In this document: positions 22,575-35,024 of the stretch, piece by piece | Position numbering within the stretch: the stretch's first letter is position 1 | Layout of the letters: each line of letters opens with the position of its first letter | Assembly (NCBI GenBank): GCA_024195265.1 | Contig: JAJLRJ010000010.1 | Location: 33,078,176-33,142,175 of the forward strand | Length of the DNA stretch: 64,000 nucleotides | Reading direction: 5' to 3' | Source of the DNA: Dendrophyllia cribrosa | Taxonomy: Eukaryota > Cnidaria > Anthozoa > Scleractinia > Dendrophylliidae | Notes under the pieces: generated by a model | Told to the model about the DNA's origin: nothing | What the model saw: the letters and a program-made list of their open reading frames with translations, nothing else | Databases searched by the model: none | Position numbers and translations under genes: made by a program

Positions 22575-22739
22575 TTACAATGACGTTTGCGGAGTACGAC
22601 AGAGAAAAGACAGCAGCTTTCTGTGACCTATTGTCGCGTCTCTCCCCTCCCTGGCAGAGTCACGGAATCGGAGCACCCCCTGGATGACGTCAGAGACTTT
22701 CCAGCCACGAGAGTGTAAGCAAACAAGTGTGTTGAGAAG
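22575..22739 (-). CDS. PARG: PARG terminal exon, AKAP110-family-like C-terminus
   Basis: Acceptor TTGTTCCTAAG; 54 codons then TAA. It reads [20 protein letters not shown] and continues [12 protein letters not shown] and [12 protein letters not shown] has a comparable short helix here (TVGDVYKLLLRYY). The longer pattern of G-x-V-x-DV/EV-x-V-LRF/LRY, then a charged stretch, then LL-x-FL/WL looks closer to the last 50 residues of AKAP3/AKAP4. That comparison is from memory, not a search. Confidence 0.8.
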   Translation of the reverse strand, partial: LLNTLVCLHSRGWKVSDVIQGVLRFRDSAREGRDATIGHRKLLSFLCRTPQTSL

Positions 22740-34700: not shown

Positions 34701-35024
34701 AATGCTCGATGCCAAAGTAACAATAAACGGAAGAACTGTGTTGAAAAATGTTTCTCTTTCTTCTTTCGCGGCCATTTCTTCGAGAAATATCCCCAAGCCG
34801 TCAAATTCCCAGCCTGACCCCAAGCCATTGGAATCCAAAACCTCCGTTGAACGAGAAACAACTTTGATGTCATTGCCTGCTTCTGTGAACAATCTCTCCA
34901 ACACCTCAGCTAGCTCTTTTGCAGTTTCTATCCCATCTAGCTCTGAATAGAGGTCTTGAAGCTTTTGCCACCTTTGTTTATCGAGATGTGGAAGTTCTAT
35001 ATGCCGCAATTTTGGAAACACCAT
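22575..35024 (-). CDS. PARG: Poly(ADP-ribose) glycohydrolase with large AKAP-like insert (10 exons)
   Basis: Ten exons join in frame into a 1,061-residue protein: 34652-35024, 32827-32962, 31673-31784, 30252-30371, 29840-29896, 28927-29016, 27919-27996, 27190-27364, 24233-26112 and 22575-22739. PARG removes poly(ADP-ribose) chains by cleaving ribose-ribose bonds. Residues about 1-247 resemble the PARG helical accessory region. Residues 248-268 hold the macrodomain signature, GGG at 256-258, seven residues, then QEE at 266-268 with both catalytic glutamates. Residues 297-380 continue the fold ([18 protein letters not shown]). Residues 962-1007 restore it with ATGNWGCG and TFGD. Between them lies an acidic insert of about 580 residues with amphipathic helices, and the last exon resembles AKAP3/AKAP4 C-termini. 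An in-frame TGA lies about nine codons upstream of the chosen ATG, but a 5' exon spliced at an AG just upstream cannot be excluded. The PARG call is firm; the AKAP relation is inference. Confidence 0.9.
22866..23089. mobile_element. Foldback MITE (ggccccgtttacacggg ends)
   Basis: Left arm ggccccgtttacacgggtcc complemented at 23070-23089; located in the last PARG intron. Confidence 0.9.
23935..24155. repeat. ~31-bp tandem repeat in last PARG intron
   Basis: About six diverged units of taatgaatgttaatgatggc plus atcgaccatta. Confidence 0.9.
24233..26112 (-). CDS. PARG: PARG exon 9: 1,880-bp exon with acidic AKAP-like insert and GNWGCG motif
   Basis: Acceptor TATATGTAG, donor GTAAGTG. The split GAA codon at the 5' side and phase 0 at the 3' side join the flanking PARG exons exactly. 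Residues about 382-958 are Ser/Glu/Asp-rich and look disordered, punctuated by amphipathic segments near residues 420-437, 541-563, 688-710, 759-783, 860-891 and 927-952. Examples are [17 protein letters not shown] and [19 protein letters not shown], which fit the alternating hydrophobic pattern of RII-binding helices. The final 46 codons return to [30 protein letters not shown] and VVYHTFGD. A separate AKAP-only transcript starting in this exon is possible but nothing here proves it. Confidence 0.85.
26160..26530. repeat. gttactttcgg-rich dispersed element
   Basis: Contains many ttactttcgg words with a core resembling 53600-53900, where the sequence is in the opposite orientation. Probably a MITE family; lies in the PARG intron just 5' of the giant exon. 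Confidence 0.65.
26753..27033 (+). repeat. ~140-bp tandem duplication
   Basis: Two copies starting ccttcgaagaaaaggtcttt (26753 and 26890), over 90 percent alike by eye, in a PARG intron. Confidence 0.9.
27190..27364 (-). CDS. PARG: PARG exon 8
   Basis: Fifty-eight codons plus one base. It reads [10 protein letters not shown], then [13 protein letters not shown], matching PARG IVAIDALHF and ELNKAYCGFL. It ends at NSPS in phase 1. In other PARG proteins the ATGNWGCG motif follows after only a few residues; here the giant acidic exon comes first. Confidence 0.9.
27919..27996 (-). CDS. PARG: PARG exon 7
   Basis: Twenty-six codons read [19 protein letters not shown]. The SGYG-T-F segment matches the YTGYAETYRW strand of vertebrate PARG, where the tyrosine region contributes to the substrate pocket. 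Phase 0 on both sides. Confidence 0.9.
28085..28315 (+). repeat. ~87-bp tandem repeat (repeat family locus 4)
   Basis: Two and a half units with accatgcaaaagtactgc and tttcatttgaatggtcacac, in a PARG intron. Confidence 0.9.
28575..28712. mobile_element. MITE (gggccgagttgttcaaag type)
   Basis: Ends gggccgagttgttcaaagc / complement, with an inner attagcactaatcctggat pair. Related element at 45772-46013. Confidence 0.85.
28927..29016 (-). CDS. PARG: PARG exon 6, catalytic EE residues
   Basis: Thirty codons begin [20 protein letters not shown]. The two glutamates (residues 267 and 268) complete the GGG-X7-QEE signature required for catalysis. The following NPELL and ECIMV segments are standard PARG core. 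All key residues are present, so the enzyme is predicted active. Confidence 0.95.
29840..29896 (-). CDS. PARG: PARG exon 5, catalytic GGG loop
   Basis: Nineteen codons read [19 protein letters not shown]. This is the diphosphate-binding GGG loop of the PARG macrodomain, ending in the glutamine of the QEE motif. It is phase 0 on both sides, so the catalytic motif is split across two exons. Confidence 0.95.
30252..30371 (-). CDS. PARG: PARG exon 4
   Basis: Forty codons, phase 0 at both ends. It reads [16 protein letters not shown], then [10 protein letters not shown]. The GxMLQ ending directly precedes the catalytic [11 protein letters not shown] exon, as in known PARG proteins. Confidence 0.85.
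30779..31060. repeat. (GT)n plus poly(G)-headed repeat
   Basis: gtgtgt, then about 36 G, followed by the same kind of body as 2863-3110 (aaaaggtaccaaagtcttgt). Confidence 0.7.
31492..31612. mobile_element. Short foldback element in PARG intron
   Basis: Arms cacttaatgactgatccctt and complement at 31592-31611, with inner gggaaacagtgaattttgtt pair. Confidence 0.85.
31673..31784 (-). CDS. PARG: PARG exon 3
   Basis: Acceptor TTTTTATAG, donor GTAGTC. It reads [12 protein letters not shown] followed by KVFYSRQ, matching the PARG segment where a KL-x-LF-x-YF-x-R helix precedes a short strand. The reading frame joins both neighbouring exons without a stop. Confidence 0.85.
32827..32962 (-). CDS. PARG: PARG exon 2
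   Basis: Acceptor TTATTGCAG, donor GTATGA; starts in phase 1 and ends in phase 2. It reads [17 protein letters not shown], the hydrophobic helix typical of PARG (the vertebrate equivalent has an IA-LLANAFFCTFP pattern), followed by INFVGFF. Confidence 0.85.
33225..33455. mobile_element. Foldback element in PARG intron
   Basis: Arms include ggcaatttcgggcaa/ttgcccgaaattgcc-type inner arms and gctattacagctatccaatt outer region; hairpin about 200 bp. Confidence 0.7.
33850..34020. mobile_element. Foldback element centred on a perfect hairpin
   Basis: Arms aatcacatgacttttg / complement; centre gtagcatcatttgc...gcaaatgatgctac around cgctccgctcgg. Confidence 0.85.
34652..35024 (-). CDS. PARG: PARG exon 1 (N-terminal helical region)
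   Basis: Codes for residues 1-124 and ends in phase 1 before GTAAGG. It begins [19 protein letters not shown]. The conserved-looking segment [22 protein letters not shown] matches the expected start of the PARG accessory domain. No long disordered N-terminal extension like that of vertebrate PARG is visible, so this protein starts almost at the catalytic region unless upstream exons exist. Confidence 0.75.

What the first reader, a model, noticed from the sequence alone, without database searches (positions are those of the whole stretch)
22575..35024. Apparent PARG/A-kinase-anchoring-protein chimera
The gene encodes an intact PARG catalytic core (GGG at residues 256-258, QEE at 266-268). The fold is interrupted before ATGNWGCG by about 580 acidic residues with repeated amphipathic helices, and the last 54 codons read like the C-terminus of AKAP3/AKAP4. 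If right, one protein couples poly(ADP-ribose) hydrolysis to PKA anchoring. It also suggests that the AKAP110 family (AKAP3, AKAP4, AKAP11, SPHKAP) may descend from a PARG gene that lost its N-terminal catalytic part. Seen: exons, phases, motifs. Known: PARG and RII-helix patterns. Inferred: the evolutionary link. I do not know of a published description.
Basis: partly seen in the sequence, partly recalled or inferred. Interest (0 to 1): 0.93.

Follow-up and report, generated by a model that had tools for sequence, protein, structure and literature searches.

The report
PARG enzyme carrying an AKAP-like insert
An animal gene still encodes a complete poly(ADP-ribose)-cutting enzyme, but its core domain is split by a long helical insert, and details such as a shared intron suggest that it is a living relative of the ancestor of the vertebrate PKA-anchoring proteins AKAP11, SPHKAP, AKAP3 and AKAP4.

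Summary
A 10-exon minus-strand gene (35024-22575, all introns GT-AG, 1061 aa) encodes PARG's helical domain and macrodomain; the macrodomain is split by about 578 residues just before GNWGCG. Four full-length homologues (1024-1088 aa) lie on 3.5-4.3 kb contigs, most simply spliced RNA. 'Chimera' misleads: the last two exons are PARG's own C-terminus.

The AKAP link is real but partly in print: Nat Commun 2024 reports PARG-like C-termini in AKAP3/4/11 and SPHKAP. New here:
- the same genome has a second PARG without the insert;
- the last intron sits at the same residue and phase as in mammalian AKAP4, seen in one genomic ORF;
- AKAP N-termini look like the decayed other half of the macrodomain (P 3.8e-4, 0 of 400 shuffles, leaning on recalled AKAP11/SPHKAP; database AKAP4 alone P 0.025). 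These AKAPs would then be split PARGs with the insert at the same site.

PKA anchoring is unproven: Pfam's RII model misses all eight helices tested, though residues 695-711 resemble recalled RII helices more than any of 300 shuffles.

The parts
34652..35024 (-). exon 1, start codon and N-terminal region, residues 1-124
   Evidence: conserved in four full-length homologues
32827..32962 (-). exon 2, PARG helical domain (PARG_cat_N, residues 87-206 over exons 1-3)
31673..31784 (-). exon 3, PARG helical domain
30252..30371 (-). exon 4, start of macrodomain
29840..29896 (-). exon 5, macrodomain with GGG 256-258 and Q266
28927..29016 (-). exon 6, catalytic E267 E268
27919..27996 (-). exon 7, macrodomain
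27190..27364 (-). exon 8, end of macrodomain N-half ([16 protein letters not shown])
24233..26112 (-). exon 9, giant exon: insert plus GNWGCG and macrodomain C-half up to residue 1007
24380..26112 (-). the insert, residues about 381-958, acidic, several likely amphipathic helices
   Evidence: absent from the ordinary PARG of the same genome
25121..25171 (-). best RII-type helix candidate, residues 695-711 ([17 protein letters not shown])
   Evidence: recalled-helix PSSM 16.5 against shuffle maximum 14.5 of 300; not hit by Pfam RII_binding_1
24611..24661 (-). second helix candidate, residues 865-881 ([17 protein letters not shown])
   Evidence: PSSM 10.5; not hit by Pfam
25574..25639 (-). conserved [12 protein letters not shown] segment, residues 539-560, resembles AKAP4 KEFAD.ISKGLM
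   Evidence: several invariant or nearly invariant positions; hhalign P=0.048 only
22575..22739 (-). exon 10, last 54 codons and stop; homologous both to the PARG C-terminus and to the AKAP3/4/11/SPHKAP C-terminus

Best explanation
This is a duplicate of the PARG gene, in an animal that also keeps an ordinary PARG. A loop of its macrodomain, between the RELNK..GF helix and the GNWGCG strand, has grown into a 578-residue acidic, helix-bearing arm. It should still fold as PARG and hydrolyse poly(ADP-ribose), with the arm extending from the surface. [quoted passage not shown] In the window protein the arm probably serves as a scaffold, and possibly already binds PKA regulatory subunits. Shown: gene structure, intact motifs, C-terminal homology, shared intron with AKAP4. 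Supported but not settled: retained N-half in the AKAPs, common origin of the arms. Inferred: enzyme activity and PKA binding.
For: Gene model and PARG domains. Contiguous full-length homologues. C-terminus against AKAP4 profile P=1.6e-9; Pfam AKAP_110 3.5e-5, 22.8 bits against a cut-off of 25. Second, ordinary PARG on contig C12 with the usual short linker. Last intron: window [21 protein letters not shown], phase 0; 51 unspliced homologous ORFs of 51 run on into V at that point (29 placed by script, 22 read by eye); one mammalian AKAP4 genomic ORF, P0166, runs on at GDDDGQLEK|V where 111 of the 120 listed AKAP4 rows read on as LP; both sites lie 11 residues before the G of G[WY]xV, while the ordinary PARG intron lies 4-5 codons earlier on the gap-sparing alignment. 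One-residue insertion and deletion shared by split PARG and AKAP4 against PARG on that alignment. Tree: the four PARGs, this genome's own included, split from split-PARG plus AKAP at 100/100. AKAP N-termini against macrodomain N-half: 123 collinear columns, P=3.8e-4, 0 of 400 shuffles.
Against: The insert as a whole does not match the AKAP4 N-part convincingly (P=0.048), and an HMM of the insert plus C-terminus gives AKAP4 and recalled AKAP11 only E 0.14 to 4 over the whole sequence. The Pfam RII model hits 0 of 8 helices. A PSSM of AKAP11 helix units scores the reversed insert higher than the real one in 5 of 13 cases, the window's among them. The N-half test leans on recalled AKAP11 and SPHKAP, and the joint profile is the best of six target versions; singly they give P 0.17 each, and database AKAP4 alone P=0.025 with 6 of 400 shuffles reaching it. 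The tree rests on 97 columns with long branches and two recalled rows. The AKAP4 intron is seen in one genomic ORF; an alignment with more gaps brings the ordinary PARG intron within one codon. Both AlphaFold models were useless.
Confidence: 0.72

Rival explanations
1. An ordinary PARG duplicate with a disordered insert of its own; the AKAPs came from another PARG branch and grew their helical arm independently.
For: No significant insert-to-AKAP alignment, no Pfam RII hit, failed reversed control of the helix-unit test.
Against: Same last-intron position and phase as AKAP4, shared indels and tree grouping apart from ordinary PARG; the AKAP N-half alignment puts the split at the same site.
Confidence: 0.2
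2. A true fusion: the C-terminal exons of an AKAP gene were joined to PARG by exon shuffling.
For: The last exons look like the AKAP3/4 C-terminus.
Against: The C-terminal piece scores far better against PARG_cat_C (4.9e-18) than AKAP_110 (3.5e-5) and aligns collinearly with PARG through GNWGCG and beyond.
Confidence: 0.04
3. A mis-joined model: PARG exons 1-8 and exons 9-10 are separate genes or transcripts.
For: The giant exon could be a gene of its own.
Against: Four full-length contiguous ORFs in homologues; no other NWGCG exon in the window; no methionine in the first 99 residues of the exon-9 open frame.
Confidence: 0.03
4. A catalytically dead PARG used only as a scaffold, like the AKAPs.
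For: The insert lies next to the GNWGCG strand; one homologue, P0048, has drifted there and in the VDFAN strand.
Against: GGG, QEE, the SGYG region and GNWGCG are present in the window protein and align with solved PARGs.
Confidence: 0.1

Closest known systems
Poly(ADP-ribose) glycohydrolase (PARG; PF20811 + PF05028; PDB 4a0d, 8adj)
   Same: Both catalytic Pfam domains in order, GGG-QEE signature, GNWGCG and C-terminal region
   Different: 578-residue insert in the macrodomain loop where the PARGs aligned here have roughly 10-20 residues; own C-terminal signature (QWVAAS, GWKVSDV, LLSFLC)
AKAP110 family (AKAP3, AKAP4, AKAP11/AKAP220, SPHKAP; PF05716)
   Same: C-terminal about 85 residues, last intron position and giant-exon layout (AKAP4), probably the same split macrodomain, helix-rich arm
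   Different: No PARG helical domain or catalytic motifs in AKAP4; the window protein keeps them; PKA binding is established for these AKAPs (general knowledge), not here
PARG-like C-termini of AKAPs as published (PMC11377751, 2024)
   Same: Same C-terminal homology
   Different: The section read treats human proteins and says the N-terminal portion appears lost; it shows no intact intermediate

Membership tests
PARG | PARG_cat_N and PARG_cat_C domains in order | tested here: met
   both above the curated cut-off
PARG | GGG..QEE catalytic signature | tested here: met
PARG | poly(ADP-ribose) hydrolysis | not testable with these tools
   needs an enzyme assay
AKAP110 family (PF05716) | profile match above the curated cut-off | tested here: not met
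   22.8 bits against 25 for the C-terminal piece; no match listed for the full protein
AKAP110 family (PF05716) | homologous C-terminal region | tested here: met
   hhalign against AKAP4 P=1.6e-9
AKAP110 family (PF05716) | last intron at the same residue and phase (AKAP4) | tested here: met
   one AKAP4 genomic ORF; AKAP3, AKAP11 and SPHKAP not tested
AKAP (functional class) | RII-binding helix by Pfam RII_binding_1 | tested here: not met
   0 of 8 helices; the AKAP4 control was hit
AKAP (functional class) | helix resembling known RII helices | tested here: inconclusive
   window best 16.5, shuffle maximum 14.5; in 13 of 17 homologues the best forward site beats the best reversed one, not always at the same helix; matrix from recalled helices
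AKAP (functional class) | binding of PKA regulatory subunits | not testable with these tools
   needs a binding assay

The most novel reading that the evidence does not exclude
A living intermediate of enzyme-to-scaffold evolution: an active poly(ADP-ribose) hydrolase whose macrodomain is split by a PKA-anchoring arm, from which AKAP11/SPHKAP/AKAP3/AKAP4 arose by losing the helical domain and catalysis while keeping both macrodomain halves around the arm. The AKAP220 family would then predate the cnidarian-bilaterian split (if the window is cnidarian), and ADP-ribose and cAMP signalling would meet in one molecule.
Probability: 0.4. Interest if true: 0.93.

Novelty: new variant of a known kind. 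Interest (0 to 1): 0.78.

Why it matters
The origin of many AKAPs is unclear; a 2025 perspective places AKAP220 and others with the vertebrates (PMC12203939, passages). This gene gives a full-length, probably active intermediate with conserved introns, turns a remote C-terminal similarity into a testable descent, and predicts that AKAP11, a protein tied to schizophrenia and bipolar disorder (PMC13025221, passage; PMC12130464, start of abstract), has a macrodomain built from its two ends.

Tried and rejected
AlphaFold of homologue P0023 (pLDDT 35.7, pTM 0.27) and of dog AKAP4 (31.3, 0.20), both with shallow alignments: not usable, so no fold search was run. A PSSM of 14 helix units of recalled AKAP11 beats shuffled inserts (z 3.2 to 7.4) but beats reversed inserts in only 8 of 13: rejected as evidence. 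An HMM of alignment A2 against AKAP4 and recalled AKAP11 gave whole-sequence E 0.14, 0.36 and 4. Helix segments against the PDB: one found nothing, the other one adenylate kinase at E 0.33. AKAP_110 in the window's own genome: no match, but the controls gave none either, so nothing follows. Profile search A2: of 53 hits, 52 were the same family (two new, P0175 and P0176) and one was a vertebrate PARG; no bilaterian intermediate. No tool named the organism or the homologues. Literature searches that could have shown a PARG/AKAP intermediate; in these listings PMC11377751 is the one paper I found to link the two families.

Full report
What is there. The joined exons give 1061 aa with canonical splice sites throughout. 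Pfam places PARG_cat_N at 87-206 and PARG_cat_C at 218-372, with a second stretch. Solved PARG chains align over about 69-376 and again over the GNWGCG region, with GGG, QEE and the SGYG region intact. Between the two lies an insert of about 578 acidic residues with no Pfam match. A search with residues 381-1061 found 54 relatives, each with a PARG domain in its precomputed annotation. P0023, P0031, P0048 and P0049 are full length on contigs of 3.5-4.3 kb, although in the window the same exons span 12.4 kb; spliced RNA is the simplest source. The insert holds positions that are invariant or nearly so across 14 aligned members, in blocks such as MKKS, PKC, TPP.SP, KSFAD.L and SPVKNG, so it is under constraint.

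Not a fusion. The last 103 residues score 4.9e-18 against PARG_cat_C and 3.5e-5 against AKAP_110, the latter just under its cut-off, and residues 3-77 of the piece align with PDB PARG. The C-terminus is PARG's own.

Two PARG genes. The same 627-Mb genome has a second PARG on contig C12. Its ten modelled exons read without a stop, with the ordinary linker AYCGFYSPVEQKYLPAIAT before GNWGCG and no insert; its upstream exons were not modelled. It groups with bovid, human and fly PARG. The window gene is therefore a diverged duplicate. Other copies are not excluded, since a search with a full-length homologue did not complete.

Link to the AKAP110 family. (a) Profile comparison of the C-terminus with AKAP4 (21 sequences given): P=1.6e-9, 81 columns. 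(b) AKAPs and split PARGs share W and S in QW..AS, the G[WY]xV region (SPHKAP has S for G) and a final hydrophobic LL or LF block, and AKAP4 shares a one-residue insertion and a one-residue deletion with split PARG against PARG. (c) The last intron. In the window it lies between Q1007 and L1008, phase 0. Of 56 family rows, 5 are spliced there and 51 run on into V at that point (29 placed by script, 22 read by eye from the tails). For AKAP4, 354 proteins were found and 120 listed; of the 120, 111 read on as LP, one genomic ORF, P0166, runs on as VSN, and 8 did not match the pattern. Both sites stand 11 residues before the G of G[WY]xV. The ordinary PARG of the same genome has its intron after FGDA, four to five codons earlier; one alignment with extra gaps brings it within one codon. 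(d) Tree of 14 C-termini: PARG apart from split PARG and AKAP at 100/100, with split PARGs lying between the two; only 97 columns, long branches, two rows recalled; without these two the arrangement is similar.

Both halves kept. The macrodomain N-half of split and ordinary PARGs was compared with the N-termini of AKAP4 (24 database rows given), AKAP11 and SPHKAP (recalled). First profile: P=0.0024, 122 columns; 0 of 300 shuffles reach it, and seven other slices of the window protein gave P 0.34 to 0.93. With more PARG rows added: P=3.8e-4, 123 collinear columns, 0 of 400 shuffles. This joint profile is the best of six target versions. Database AKAP4 alone: P=0.025, 20 columns at the corresponding place, 6 of 400 shuffles. 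SPHKAP and AKAP11 singly: P 0.17 each; in full length (P 0.28 and 0.46) each still gives its best local match in the same N-terminal stretch. If this holds, the AKAP110 proteins are split macrodomains with the arm at the same site as in the window gene, and the published statement that the N-terminal portion appears lost applies to the helical domain and the catalytic loops only.

PKA binding. In 13 of 17 homologues the best forward site beats the best reversed one, but the best site is not always the equivalent helix. Against this, Pfam RII_binding_1 hit none of eight helices, the insert-to-AKAP4 comparison gave only P=0.048, at [23 protein letters not shown], and the AKAP11-unit matrix failed its reversed control. 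PKA anchoring is plausible, about even odds.

How it likely works. The insert leaves and re-enters at one loop of the macrodomain, so the PARG fold can close around its base; the arm would place binding partners, perhaps PKA, beside a PAR-degrading site. In AKAP11, SPHKAP, AKAP3 and AKAP4 the enzyme decayed and the arm became the function. The first half of this is inference from anatomy, the second from the homology above. No usable structure model was obtained.

What is already known. PMC11377751 (section 8 and passages read) reports the C-terminal PARG homology of the four human AKAPs. PMC12203939 (passages) places AKAP220 among AKAPs that appear with vertebrates. PMC4245714 (passages) tabulates hydrolases across eukaryotes and may list more than one PARG in several animals; I did not see the column headings. 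I found no description of a PARG with this insert in the searches named under Tried and rejected.

Noticed in passing
G000 contig C12:159114-172596 (L006, L007): Ordinary PARG gene of the same genome, + strand, ten exons read without a stop, no insert; upstream exons were not modelled.
   Followed up: partly
window 37443-38228 (-): ORF with EF-hand pairs and a weak EH-domain match next to the PARG gene.
   Followed up: no
window 40150-40707 (-): ORF with a ZZ-type zinc finger and a hydrophobic N-terminal stretch.
   Followed up: no
window 54156-54656 (-): RhoGEF-domain open frame, probably an exon of a larger minus-strand gene.
   Followed up: no
window 17854-19448: Long repeat tract giving low-complexity open frames on both strands (poly-Ala/Ser/Leu); not coding evidence.
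   Followed up: no
P0031 and P0037, start of the insert: Acidic tract with SEDFVSSEE / SEDFASSEE, resembling the FFAT-like DFVTA-E reported for AKAP220 (PMC3261905, passages); the window protein has H in place of F, so a VAP-binding motif is not conserved.
   Followed up: partly
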